DNA of 64,000 nt from Conexibacter arvalis (GTDB lineage Bacteria; Actinomycetota; Thermoleophilia; Solirubrobacterales; Solirubrobacteraceae), in contig NZ_JACHNU010000002.1 in the NCBI RefSeq assembly GCF_014199525.1, positions 292,147 to 356,146 on the forward strand. The letters run 5' to 3'. The translations under genes were made by a program, and so were the position numbers. The notes beneath the pieces were generated by a model. The model was not told the DNA's origin and searched no databases. It saw nothing but the letters and a program-made list of their open reading frames with translations. This document shows, one piece after another, positions 57,709-61,924 of the stretch. Every line of letters starts with the position of its first letter. Position 1 is the first letter of the stretch.

Positions 57709-59061
57709 TCACCCCGCCGGCTGCGCGGCGGCCGCCTCGGCGCATGCGACGAGCCGCGCGCAGACGGCGTCTGCCTCGGCGGCGTCGGGTGCCTCGACCA
57801 TCACGCGCAGCAGCGGCTCGGTGCCGGACGGCCGCACGAGCACCCGGCCGCGTCCGTCCAGCTGGGCGTGCTCGCGCTCGATCGCCGCCGTCATCGCGGG
57901 GTCGGCCGCGGCGCGCTCGAGCGCCTGGCGGTCGCTGAGGCGCACGTTGACGAGCACCTGCGGAAGCTTCTCCATCCCCTTGCGCTCCGCGAGGGCGGTG
58001 CCGCCGAGCGCCTCGAGCGTCAGCAGCGCGCTCGCGATGCCGTCGCCGGACGGCGCGAAGCCGAGCTCGACGATGTGGCCGGACTGCTCGCCGCCCAGCG
58101 CCCAGTCGCGCTGACGGAGCGCTTCCAGCACGTAGCGGTCGCCGACGGCGGTCGTCGCGACCTCGATCCCGGCCTCCGCCATCGCCGCGTGGAATCCGTA
58201 GTTGGTCATCACCGTCACCGCGACGCCGTTGCCGCGCAGTCTCCCCTGCGCGCGCAGATGCAGCGCGGCGAGCGCGATCAGCTCGTCGCCGTCGACGACG
58301 ACGCCGTTGCCGTCGACCGCCAGCACGCGGTCGCCGTCGCCGTCGAAGGCGAAGCCGGCGTCGTGGTCTCCCGCCCGCATCGCCTCGACCAGCCCGTCGA
58401 GGTGCGTCGAGCCGCAGCCCGCGTTGATGTTGCGGCCGTCGGGGGCGTCGGCGAGCACGTCGACGTGCGCGCCGAGCCGGCGGAAGATCTCCGGCGCCGC
58501 CTTGCACGTCGCGCCGTTTGCGCAGTCGAGCACGATCCGCCGGCCGCTCAGGTCGAGGCCGCCGAAGCGCTGCTGCAGCTCGCGCAGGTAGTCGTCGAGC
58601 GTGCCGTGCAGCTGCGTGACGGCGCCGATCCGCGCCGGCGGCGGGACCGCGGCGCGGTCGCCGTCGAGCAGCGCCTCGATCTCCTCCTCGACGGCGTCGG
58701 AGAGCTTGTCGCCGTCGGCGCCGAAGAACTTGACGCCGTTGTCGGCGTAGGGATTGTGGGACGCCGACAGGACGACGCCGAGGTCGAAGCCGTAGCGGGC
58801 GATCAGCAGCGGCGCGGCCGGCGTCGGCAACACGCCGCCGAGCAGCGCGACGCCGCCGGAGGCCGCGACGCCAGCGGCGACCGCCGCCTCGAGCATCTCG
58901 CCCGACTCGCGCGTGTCGCGGATCACGAGCACGCGCGGGCGCTCCGCGGAGGCGGCGGCGCGCGCCGTGGCGGCGCGCGCGAGGGCGAGCGTCAGCTCGG
59001 CTGACAGGAACTCGCCGGCGACGCCGCGGACGCCGTCCGTGCCGAACAACCGGCGAGCCAT
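57709..59061 (-). CDS. glmM: Phosphoglucosamine mutase
   Basis: 450 aa. Catalytic phosphoserine loop in LSASHNPYADNGVKFF, N-terminal FGTDGVRG, metal-binding DGDGDR in FAFDGDGDRVLAV and the C-terminal phosphate loop RPSGTEPLLRVM. Converts glucosamine-6-P to glucosamine-1-P. It is 10 nt downstream of rpsI and so co-transcribed with ribosomal genes. Confidence 0.97.
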   Translation of the reverse strand: MARRLFGTDGVRGVAGEFLSAELTLALARAATARAAASAERPRVLVIRDTRESGEMLEAAVAAGVAASGGVALLGGVLPTPAAPLLIARYGFDLGVVLSASHNPYADNGVKFFGADGDKLSDAVEEEIEALLDGDRAAVPPPARIGAVTQLHGTLDDYLRELQQRFGGLDLSGRRIVLDCANGATCKAAPEIFRRLGAHVDVLADAPDGRNINAGCGSTHLDGLVEAMRAGDHDAGFAFDGDGDRVLAVDGNGVVVDGDELIALAALHLRAQGRLRGNGVAVTVMTNYGFHAAMAEAGIEVATTAVGDRYVLEALRQRDWALGGEQSGHIVELGFAPSGDGIASALLTLEALGGTALAERKGMEKLPQVLVNVRLSDRQALERAAADPAMTAAIEREHAQLDGRGRVLVRPSGTEPLLRVMVEAPDAAEADAVCARLVACAEAAAAQPAG

Positions 59062-59071
59062 GGCCTGCGGA

Positions 59072-59824
59072 CTAGCGCTTCGAGAACTGCGGCCGCTTGC
59101 GGGCCTTCTTGAGGCCGGCCTTCTTGCGCTCCTTCACGCGCGGGTCACGCGTGAGGAAGCCGCGCTTCTTCAGCTCGCCGCGAAGGTTCGGGTCGGCCTC
59201 GAGCAGCGCGCGCGAGATGCCGTGCCGCAGCGCGCCGGCCTGCGCCGAGACGCCGCCGCCGTGCATCTTCGCGATGACGTCCATCCGCTCCTCGAAGCCG
59301 ACGGCCTCGAGCGGCTGGCGGATGTTGCGCTGGAGCGTCGGGCGCGGGAAGAAGTCGTCGAGCGGCTTGCCGTTGATCGTGTACTGGCCGGTGCCCGGCT
59401 TCAGGATCACGCGCGCGACAGCCGTCTTGCGCTTGCCCGTGGCGGTGTAGCGAGCGCCGGACGCGAGGCTGATCGCGGCATCCGCGATCGGCTGCGCCTC
59501 CTGCTCGTCGTCGGCCTCGGACTCCGCGGCGGGGGTCGACTCCTCGTCGCCCTCCTCGTCGTCGCGCGCCTCGCCCTCGAGCACGATGTCCGGGACGAGA
59601 TCGGCGCCGGGGATCTCCGGCTTGACGCGCGGCGTCTCCTCGATCTCCTCCAGCTCCTCGTCGGCCTCGTCGGACTCCTGCGCAGCGGGCTGCTCGGGAG
59701 CGGCGTCGGCAGCGGGCTGCTCGGCGGCGGGCTGGGGCGCCTCGTTGGCGGCCTCGACGGGCTCCTCGGGCGCGTCGCCCGCGGGGTTGCGCTGCTCGTC
59801 TTCAGGCTGCTCGACGTCGGACAC
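59072..59824 (-). CDS. rpsI: 30S ribosomal protein S9 with a long acidic N-terminal extension
   Basis: 250 aa, nearly twice the usual length. The S9 core begins near residue 124 ([18 protein letters not shown]) and ends with [12 protein letters not shown]. The first ~123 residues are an acidic, Ala/Pro/Glu-rich low-complexity stretch (for instance [14 protein letters not shown]). The GTG overlaps the rplM stop (TAGTG). No internal start with a ribosome-binding site was evident just before the core, so the extension seems to be translated. Confidence 0.93.
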
Positions 59825-60258
59825 TAGGCTTCGATCTCCATCGGTTGCGGCTGCTGGGCGGTGTGCGGGTGGTCCGGACCGGCATACACCTTCAGCTTGG
59901 TGAGCTGCTTGCGCGCAAGGCGGTTGCGGGGCAGCATGCCCTTCACCGCGATGCGGATGACCTCCTCCGGGCGCCGCTCGAGCATCTCCTCGAGCGTGCG
60001 GGAGCGGAGGCCGCCGGGGTAGCCGGAGTGGCGGTAGTAGCGCTTGTCGGCTCGCTTGTTGCCCGAGACCGAGATCTTCTCGGCGTTGATCACGACGACG
60101 AAGTCGCCAGTGTCGACGTGCGGGGTGAACGTGGGCTTGCGCTTGCCGCGCAGGGCATCGGCGATCTGCGTGGCGAGGCGGCCGAGCGTCTGCCCGTTCG
60201 CGTCCACGACAAGCCAGTTGCGCTCGCGGTCGTTGGGATTGGCGACGTAAGTTCTCAT
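59824..60258 (-). CDS. rplM: 50S ribosomal protein L13
   Basis: 144 aa. [49 protein letters not shown] and [29 protein letters not shown] are diagnostic. The ATG at 60258 matches the actinobacterial MRTY start. First gene of the rplM-rpsI-glmM-glmS operon. Confidence 0.97.
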
Positions 60259-60445: not shown

Positions 60446-60610
60446 CGTTCCATAAGCCTGCCGAATCCCTCCACGGAGGGAGCGGGGAACCCAACGGCGG
60501 TGGCGCACGTCGCAGCGCCACCGTTGGGGCGAATCCGAGCGAGTCGCTCGGTAGCGCGGCCCTTTCAGCGCGAGCCCGTCAGCTAACCCCGTAGGCCGTC
60601 AAGAAAGGGG
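60446..60610 (+). promoter_or_regulatory. c-di-AMP riboswitch (ydaO/yuaA type)
   Basis: Recognised from the conserved blocks of this class: CATAAGCCTGCCGAATCC near the 5' end, GGGGAACCCAACGG, GGGGCGAATCCGAG, and AGCCCGTCAGCTAACCCCG followed by TAGGC near the 3' end. A promoter box precedes it and an M23 peptidase gene follows 12 nt after it, a combination typical of actinobacteria where c-di-AMP represses cell-wall hydrolases. GAAAGGG at 60603-60609, next to the ribosome-binding region, can pair with CCCTTTC at 60560-60566, so control may act on translation. No separate terminator hairpin was seen. Confidence 0.88.
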
Positions 60611-60622
60611 CATCGACCGACG

Positions 60623-61924
60623 ATGCTGCTTGGACCGGGGTCCTCCCTGCCCCGACCTGCTGGGATGACGACGCTCGCCACCGCCCTCCTTGGGCTCGCC
60701 GGCGCCTCTCCCGCGATCGCCGCCAGCGGCGGCGCCTCGGCCGCTCCCTCCGCGCCCGCCGCGGCCTCGCCCTCCGCCCCATCGGTCACGAGCGTCGCCT
60801 GCCGTAGCGGCTGCCGCACCGGCGGAGCGGTCGCGCGCGGCGGCACGATCACCCTTCACGGCCAGCGGCTCGATCGCGCGACCGCCGTCGTCTTCCTCGG
60901 CGGCATCGGCCCGCGCGACGACGTCCGCGTCGCGATCCGCGCCAAGAGCGCGGCACGCGTCGACGTGAAGATCCCGGCGACGGCCAAGAGCGGTCGGATC
61001 GCGCTCGCCAGCTCGGCCGGCGTCGCCGCGCAGACCTCGGCGGCCCCGTTGAAGGTCACGGGCGCCGCGTCGCGGCAGCTCTCGACCGTGACGGAGCCGG
61101 TGGAGCCGACGCTGAAGCCGGTCAAGGGGATCGCCCAACTCGACGCCGGCATCGCCAAGCGCAAGGTCGGCAAGGCCGGCGTCTCGGCCGTGACGATCGC
61201 CTACGTCTCGCACGCGCCCGAGCAGACGGTGCGCGTCGACGTCGTGCGCCGCGCCGACAACCTCTCGATCTTCAGCGACGAGCGCACCGTCAGCGGCGAG
61301 GAGCAGCAGACGCTGACGTGGAACGGCCGTGGCGCGAGCGCCCTGGCGCTCGACGGCAAGTACGACGTGCGCATCTCGACCGGCGGCAGCCCGACCGGTC
61401 CGCGCAGCGCCAAGTTCGACGTCGCCGCCGCCGGCGGCGCCGCGCCCGAGGGCACTCCCCCGCCGACCGGCTCGACCAGCCTCGGCGCCTTCACCTTCGT
61501 CGGCGCGGTCTTCCCCGTCCGCGGGACGCACAACTTCGGCCAGAGCGCCGCCCGCTTCGGTGCAGGCCGCGGCGGCCGCTCCCACCAGGGCCAGGACATG
61601 ATGGCGCGCTGCGGCACGCCGGTCGTCGCCGCGCGCGGCGGCGTCGTGAAGATGCGGACGTTCCAGGCGGCCGCGGGCAACTACGTGGTCGTGAGCGACC
61701 CCGTGACCGGCCAGGACCACGCCTACATGCACTTGCGCGCGCCGGCCGTCGTCGCCAGAGGCGACACCGTCGAGACGGGACAGCTGCTCGGCTACGTCGG
61801 CTCCACCGGCAGCTCCACGGCCTGCCACCTCCACTTCGAGATCTGGACCGCCCCCGGCTGGTACGAGGGCGGTCGGCCGATCGACCCCTACGCGACGCTG
61901 AAGCGCTGGGCGAAGCTCGGCTGA
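60623..61924 (+). CDS. M23 family peptidoglycan endopeptidase
   Basis: 433 aa, exported (hydrophobic N-terminus ending about ASPAIAA). Next come an IPT/TIG-like domain (PSVTSVACRSGCRTGGAVARGGTITLHGQRL...) and an FlgD-like Ig segment (TLTWNGRGASALALDGKYDVRIST). The C-terminal LytM domain has HQGQD (Zn His, Asp) and HLHFE (Zn His). Directly downstream of a c-di-AMP riboswitch, so wall hydrolysis is linked to c-di-AMP level. Confidence 0.93.
   Translation: MLLGPGSSLPRPAGMTTLATALLGLAGASPAIAASGGASAAPSAPAAASPSAPSVTSVACRSGCRTGGAVARGGTITLHGQRLDRATAVVFLGGIGPRDDVRVAIRAKSAARVDVKIPATAKSGRIALASSAGVAAQTSAAPLKVTGAASRQLSTVTEPVEPTLKPVKGIAQLDAGIAKRKVGKAGVSAVTIAYVSHAPEQTVRVDVVRRADNLSIFSDERTVSGEEQQTLTWNGRGASALALDGKYDVRISTGGSPTGPRSAKFDVAAAGGAAPEGTPPPTGSTSLGAFTFVGAVFPVRGTHNFGQSAARFGAGRGGRSHQGQDMMARCGTPVVAARGGVVKMRTFQAAAGNYVVVSDPVTGQDHAYMHLRAPAVVARGDTVETGQLLGYVGSTGSSTACHLHFEIWTAPGWYEGGRPIDPYATLKRWAKLG

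What the first reader, a model, noticed from the sequence alone, without database searches (positions are those of the whole stretch)
59072..59824. Ribosomal protein S9 with a 123-residue acidic extension
The S9 core is complete but preceded by an acidic low-complexity tail as long as the core itself. Many actinobacterial S9 proteins carry extensions, but rarely this long as far as I know. Such a tail would project from the ribosome surface and could bind basic factors, or act as an assembly chaperone for the very basic S9.
Basis: partly seen in the sequence, partly recalled or inferred. Interest (0 to 1): 0.5.

Follow-up and report, generated by a model that had tools for sequence, protein, structure and literature searches.

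The report
Acidic ribosomal S9 arm with peptide
In one order of soil bacteria the ribosomal protein S9 carries a long, probably floppy, negatively charged N-terminal arm, and inside it a short stretch is conserved about as strictly as S9 itself, which suggests that the arm holds out a docking peptide for a still unknown partner.

Summary
S9 (window 59824-59072, minus strand) has a complete core (residues 125-250) behind a 124-residue acidic extension (net charge -38; core +20). Its GTG start overlaps the rplM stop. No in-frame start codon lies between residues 82 and 138, so internal initiation near residue 124 is very unlikely; cleavage is untested.

The extension is not merely low complexity. 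Residues 65-84 ([20 protein letters not shown]) are a conserved motif. A profile of it matches in frame, 37-67 residues before the S9 core, in 137 of 146 genomes of the order that have S9. Four of the nine misses are one family that lacks it; the other five are contig breaks, masked bases or a variant motif. No convincing copy was seen outside S9. In eight species pairs its dN (0.020) is near that of the S9 core (0.028) and about eightfold below the acidic flanks. Thirty-one loci from four other families of the class have 2-6 residues before the core.

Best explanation: a disordered acidic tether on the 30S head, near the mRNA exit, holding out a docking peptide for an unidentified partner. 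Charge shielding by the flanks is compatible. No partner, structure or mass spectrum was available. New variant of a known kind.

The parts
59072..59824 (-). rpsI, ribosomal protein uS9, 250 aa with N-terminal extension
   Evidence: single copy in the genome
59633..59824 (-). residues 1-64: acidic A/P/E/D-rich segment, fast evolving, variable length in relatives
   Evidence: pooled dN 0.164, dN/dS 0.42
59573..59632 (-). residues 65-84: conserved motif [20 protein letters not shown]
   Evidence: pooled dN 0.020, dN/dS 0.09
59483..59572 (-). residues 85-114: second acidic variable linker
   Evidence: pooled dN 0.155, dN/dS 0.36
59453..59482 (-). residues 115-124: conserved junction ([11 protein letters not shown]; consensus ID-LAAGA before RY) to the core
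   Evidence: pooled dN 0.043, dN/dS 0.11
59075..59452 (-). residues 125-250: canonical bacterial S9 core with intact C-terminal tail (QFSKR)
59824..60258 (-). rplM (L13), directly upstream; its stop TAG overlaps the S9 start GTG. Start taken at the second candidate (ATG); the longest ORF runs to 60279
   Evidence: start choice is inference

Best explanation
The S9 extension is a disordered acidic tether that displays a short linear docking motif (residues 65-84) from the 30S head, probably near the mRNA exit side, to a protein partner that is not identified. Shown by computation: the extension is part of the gene; it is acidic and predicted disordered; the 20-residue motif is under purifying selection about as strong as that on the S9 core, sits 37-67 residues before the core, and was found in S9 only; the flanks vary in sequence and length but keep their acidic A/P/E/D make-up. 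Inferred: that the tail stays on mature S9, that it projects near the mRNA exit (from the place of the shorter C. acnes extension), that the motif binds a protein, and that the acidic flanks keep the motif off rRNA and may also shield the very basic S9 before assembly.
For: Motif profile in frame upstream of the S9 core in 137 of 146 order genomes with S9 (135 of them at E below 0.003, two at 0.02-0.05). Of the nine misses, four are the f4 genomes with S9, two are cut by contig ends (G351, G354), one has its 5' part with the motif on another contig (G328), one has masked bases inside the motif (G358), one carries the variant SGADLEP (G355). [IVLP]PGxxL in 80 of 82 distinct long extensions, against a mean of 0.57 and a maximum of 4 in 500 shuffles. 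Eight non-overlapping pairs: dN 0.020 motif, 0.028 core, 0.164 and 0.155 flanks; dN/dS 0.09, 0.10, 0.42, 0.36; in 6 of 8 pairs no extension window at least 10 residues away has fewer changes. Synonymous sites in the motif do change (23 of 124), so the conservation is of the peptide and not of the DNA. AlphaFold2: motif blocks pLDDT 65-68 between flanks near 48. C. acnes uS9 extension above the mRNA exit, disordered (PMC10085706, passages).
Against: No partner is known and none was sought experimentally. A motif of this size could instead lie on rRNA or another ribosomal protein of the same ribosome. The flanks are not neutral (dN/dS 0.36-0.42), so the acidic make-up itself may matter, and their dN may be inflated by uncertain alignment. 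In 2 of 8 pairs some distant windows were as quiet or quieter (14 of 64 and 4 of 78). The regex was derived from the sequences it was tested on, many loci were fetched with patterns that include extension peptides, and the profile A2 was built from some of the genomes it was then run on; the core-only searches are free of the second bias only. A two-gene tree puts the motif-less family f4 inside the order with f1+f3 (support 92), so the motif was lost there or gained twice: it is dispensable in at least one family.
Confidence: 0.5

Rival explanations
1. Docking in cis: the motif binds a fixed site on its own ribosome (a neighbouring ribosomal protein, bS1, or rRNA) and is a structural or regulatory part of the 30S head.
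For: Conserved extension segments of other actinobacterial ribosomal proteins do this: bS16 on uS4 and uS17 on 16S rRNA h9 in C. acnes and M. smegmatis (PMC10085706, PMC6133939; passages). bS21 is missing from the class (0 of 150 genomes, control positive in 6 of 14), so the exit side has free space.
Against: The motif is acidic and aliphatic, unlike an rRNA binder, and is tethered by variable linkers. AlphaFold2 shows no confident contact with the S9 core (other partners were not modelled). bS21 is missing inside and outside the order alike, so it does not track the extension.
Confidence: 0.22
2. Electrostatic assembly chaperone: the acidic N-terminus shields the basic S9 (+20) during synthesis and transport to the assembling 30S.
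For: Net charge -20 to -53 in the long extensions listed against +19 to +23 for their cores; acidic leaders also start S17 and L22 in this genome and S17 in family f7 and in f1/f2 relatives.
Against: Does not explain a 20-residue motif with near-core constraint, nor why related S9 cores of the same charge do without any extension (31 loci of the class with 2-6 residues).
Confidence: 0.15
3. The extension is removed by a protease after or during assembly, so that mature S9 starts near residue 124; the conserved junction would be the cut site and the motif a recognition element.
For: The junction L-A-A-(G/D)-A-R-Y is conserved (L 74 of 80, A 78 of 80, R 75 of 80, Y 73 of 80).
Against: The junction residues adjoin the first strand of the core and model with fair confidence (block 121-130 pLDDT 85), a sufficient reason for conservation. 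No protease or precedent was found here.
Confidence: 0.08
4. Mostly neutral low-complexity growth of a tolerated N-terminus.
For: Lengths 85-209 aa in the long extensions and visible repeats such as DAPAAE in L147.
Against: Motif and junction dN/dS about 0.1; motif position and acidic make-up kept across three families.
Confidence: 0.05

Closest known systems
Actinobacterial uS9 N-terminal extensions (C. acnes 46 aa, M. smegmatis about 23 aa; PMC10085706, passages)
   Same: N-terminal, disordered, on the 30S head by the mRNA exit
   Different: One third of the length or less; the named Actinomycetes loci have extensions of up to 55 aa with other short sequences (for example DREIAYRSE) and not the PGADL motif
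Mitochondrial uS9m with long N-terminal parts (chains of 244-430 residues)
   Same: S9 core with an N-terminal part as long as the core or longer
   Different: Not compared in detail; matched only over the core, or from about residue 100 or 111 in a few chains
Other actinobacterial ribosomal protein extensions (uS17, bS16, uS5, uL22, passages)
   Same: Lineage-specific extensions, part ordered and part disordered
   Different: Those with described contacts bind rRNA or ribosomal proteins; the S9 motif here is acidic and aliphatic, and its partner is unknown
Tethered docking peptides such as the acidic C-terminal tip of ribosomal stalk proteins, SSB or FtsZ (recalled, from no call)
   Same: Conserved short peptide on a disordered, often acidic linker
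   Different: Those sit at the C-terminus and have known partners; here the peptide is internal and has none. A resemblance in working only

Membership tests
Bacterial ribosomal protein uS9 | Full-length match to curated S9 models above cut-off | tested here: met
   NF001099.0 183 bits (cut-off 112), PF00380 163.5 bits (cut-off 22.5)
Bacterial ribosomal protein uS9 | Position in the rplM-rpsI pair, single copy | tested here: met
   rplM directly upstream with overlapping stop and start; one S9 in the genome
Short linear docking motif in a disordered region | Short conserved stretch inside a variable, disordered region | tested here: met
   (prediction only)
Short linear docking motif in a disordered region | Binds a defined partner | not testable with these tools
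   No partner known; no PDB match of the motif profile at E up to 10
Electrostatic ribosomal protein chaperone | Charge opposite to, and enough to balance, the core | tested here: met
   -38 against +20 in the window protein
Electrostatic ribosomal protein chaperone | Needed for solubility or assembly of S9 | not testable with these tools
C. acnes / mycobacterial type uS9 extension | Same sequence motif or length | tested here: not met
   Lengths and sequences differ (named Actinomycetes loci L116-L136; L228)

The most novel reading that the evidence does not exclude
The arm is a recruitment device: an order-specific docking peptide on uS9 that brings a dedicated trans-acting factor (initiation, hibernation, mRNA decay or rescue) to the mRNA exit of every ribosome, much as the acidic stalk tip recruits translation GTPases, in a lineage without bS21.
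Probability: 0.3. Interest if true: 0.75.

Novelty: new variant of a known kind. Interest (0 to 1): 0.48.

Why it matters
Ribosomal protein extensions are usually set aside as disordered tails. Here a universal ribosomal protein carries, across most of a bacterial order, a peptide as constrained as its core in the middle of an otherwise fast-evolving tail. That is a concrete, testable handle: one peptide pull-down in a cultured Conexibacter or Solirubrobacter could reveal a new ribosome-associated factor or a lineage-specific step at the mRNA exit. It also adds to a wider pattern in these bacteria (acidic leaders on S9, S17 and L22) that bears on how very basic ribosomal proteins are handled before assembly.

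Tried and rejected
Internal start: the window extension has in-frame start codons only at residues 1 and 81, and the core first at 139; 61 of 82 distinct long-extension proteins have none from 20 residues before to about 4 residues into the core, and in the other 21 no Shine-Dalgarno-like GGAG is seen in the printed upstream bases, judged by eye. Rejected as likely.

A second S9 without extension in the same genome: one S9 only.

The motif as a general domain used elsewhere: a consensus peptide hits only S9 in the own genome at E up to 10. The profile over 151 genomes gives 13 listed places away from S9. Two with E below 0.01 are 5' pieces of S9 genes at contig ends (G305, G328). The other 11 have E 0.015-0.06, about what 151 genomes give by chance, and were not identified. 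The row list was cut, so weaker places were not seen (one search counts three places in G000 at E up to 1, of which only the S9 one is listed). No PDB match.

bS21 loss as the cause: bS21 is absent throughout the sampled class, so there is no contrast.

Single gain of the motif: expected f4 as the sister of the rest, but the L13+S9 tree gives f2 first, then f4 with f1+f3 (support 92), so gain in the order ancestor and loss in f4, or two gains (five loci were placed in f3 and one in f4 by resemblance, not by label). One search was a first attempt at this tree and failed on the thread setting.

Literature searches found no paper describing this S9 extension; the library holds open-licence papers only.

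Rows dropped: one search resolved 149 of 158 loci. Dropped were L003 (looks like a frame break in the assembly, motif present), L006, L080, L096, L105, L110 (cut before rplM), L026 and L111 (cut at the core) and L138. One search used whole-sequence rather than domain scores and mis-registered a few loci; one search replaces it. One f1 locus (L019, short L13) and L003, L006, L026 were left out of the tree.

Full report
What is there. Window 59824-59072 (minus) encodes a 250-residue S9. The curated S9 models cover residues 125-250 and 130-250 only, and solved bacterial S9 chains align to about 125-250. The upstream neighbour is rplM; S9 starts with GTG sharing a base with the rplM stop. Among 92 loci with an extension of 60 residues or more (duplicates and the window's own locus included), the start nearest the rplM stop overlaps it by one or four bases in 75, the usual sign of coupled translation. 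The genome has one S9.

Composition. The 124 residues before the core carry a net charge of -38 and 34% D+E, with none of C, W, F, Y or H; the core carries +20. AlphaFold2 on 41 aligned sequences gives pLDDT above 90 for most of the core and about 48-52 for most of the extension, with rises at residues 61-80 (65-68) and from 101 on (60, 64, then 85 at the junction). That is a prediction of disorder, from a shallow alignment.

Distribution. Loci fetched through the S9 core alone: 27 of 30 family loci could be resolved, with extensions of 88-189 residues (median 135); 14 loci of families f2 and f3 of the same order have 117-202; 31 loci of other families of the class (25 of f7, 3 of f11, 2 of f6, 1 of f9) have 2-6. 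Families f5, f8, f10 and f12 were not fetched. Family f4 of the order has 23-85 residues without the motif (L149-L151, L222). Outside the class, 29 phylum genomes have 4-10, and five of six more picked for long open frames have 5-40, the sixth being unresolved; starts there are less certain, since rplM is not always close. The order is named from identical named loci: for instance L027 equals L069 (Solirubrobacteraceae) and L030 equals L059 (Conexibacter sp.), the latter from a genome of the window's own genus.

The motif. Alignment of 41 extended S9 proteins shows a conserved stretch in the middle of the extension. In the window it is [20 protein letters not shown], residues 65-84. [IVLP]PGxxL occurs in 80 of 82 distinct long extensions, against a mean of 0.57 (maximum 4) in 500 shuffles of the same sequences; positions outside the regex are conserved too (D at +8 in 67 of 80, V at +10 in 69 of 80, E at +6 in 57 of 80). 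Family f2 has a variant, PGADLEPI-IEPE, followed by a charged stretch rich in E and R; f3 has PGAHLEPDLVLEE.

Order-wide test. A profile of 40 motif peptides was run on 151 genomes of the order and compared with the S9 places of the same 151 genomes. S9 was found in 146. In 137 of these a listed motif match lies in frame upstream of the S9 core, 37-67 residues before it. The nine misses were examined or are known: four are f4; G351 and G354 are cut by contig ends; G328 has the 5' part of S9, with the motif, on another contig; G358 has masked bases in the motif; G355 has SGADLEP. So every f1-f3 genome with readable sequence at that place carries the motif or a close variant. Away from S9 the profile gave 13 listed places: two are S9 pieces at contig ends and 11 have E 0.015-0.06, about the number expected by chance over 151 genomes.

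Selection. Eight non-overlapping species pairs, chosen by me among close relatives, give pooled dN of 0.164 (N segment), 0.020 (motif), 0.155 (C segment), 0.043 (junction) and 0.028 (core), with dN/dS of 0.42, 0.09, 0.36, 0.11 and 0.10. Six of the eight pairs have no window at least 10 residues away with fewer changes than the motif; two do (14 of 64 and 4 of 78 windows). An earlier run with overlapping pairs agrees. Synonymous differences occur inside the motif (23 over 124 sites), so the DNA itself is not what is conserved. dN of the flanks may be overestimated because low-complexity alignment is uncertain.

Place on the ribosome. In C. acnes the 46-residue uS9 extension lies above the mRNA exit site and its first 39 residues are disordered (PMC10085706, passages). 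In M. smegmatis the exit site is formed by uS7 and uS11, bS1 is seen there in the hibernating state, and bS21 is missing (PMC6133939, PMC5876184; passages). bS21 was found in 0 of 150 genomes of the class (control: 6 of 14). That the Solirubrobacterales arm leaves from the same place is inference from the shared core.

How it most likely works. The anatomy (acidic variable linker, constrained aliphatic-acidic peptide, acidic variable linker, conserved junction, core) fits a tethered docking peptide: the linkers give reach and repel rRNA and mRNA, the peptide binds a partner. Partner and binding are inferred. Docking on the ribosome itself is the main rival, since uS17 and bS16 extensions do that in related bacteria. 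Charge shielding explains the flanks but not the motif. The two-gene tree suggests an origin in the ancestor of the order and loss in f4, or two gains; in f4 the extension is also shorter, which fits a function that was given up there.

Comparison with what is known. Lineage-specific ribosomal protein extensions are well known, uS9 extensions in Actinobacteria included. I found no description of this one in nine full-text searches of an open-licence library; subscription papers and preprints were not covered. I file it as a new variant of a known kind: unusual in length, and unusual in holding a core-like conserved internal peptide.

Noticed in passing
window 60449-60612 (+): c-di-AMP riboswitch (RF00379, 81.6 bits) just upstream of an ORF at 60623-61924 (+) that looks like an M23-type peptidase (by eye from the translation; no family search was run on it).
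   Followed up: no
L161:3555-4130 (-), own genome: S17 has a 110-residue N-terminal extension, acidic leader then Arg/Lys/Ala-rich. In class family f7 nine of nine fetched S17 have 96-204 residues, several ending in a basic stretch like RKPIVRLPKPEHER.
   Followed up: partly
L161:5848-6498 (-), own genome: L22 (216 aa) has an N-terminal extension of roughly 105 residues, acidic then Arg/Ala-rich.
   Followed up: no
L161:4763-5842 (-), own genome: S3 (359 aa) has a Gly/Arg-rich C-terminal extension of roughly 130 residues with many RGG/GRG repeats.
   Followed up: no
window 58913-59827 (+): A 304-residue open frame runs antisense through S9; read as a G+C-rich mirror artefact, not tested.
   Followed up: no
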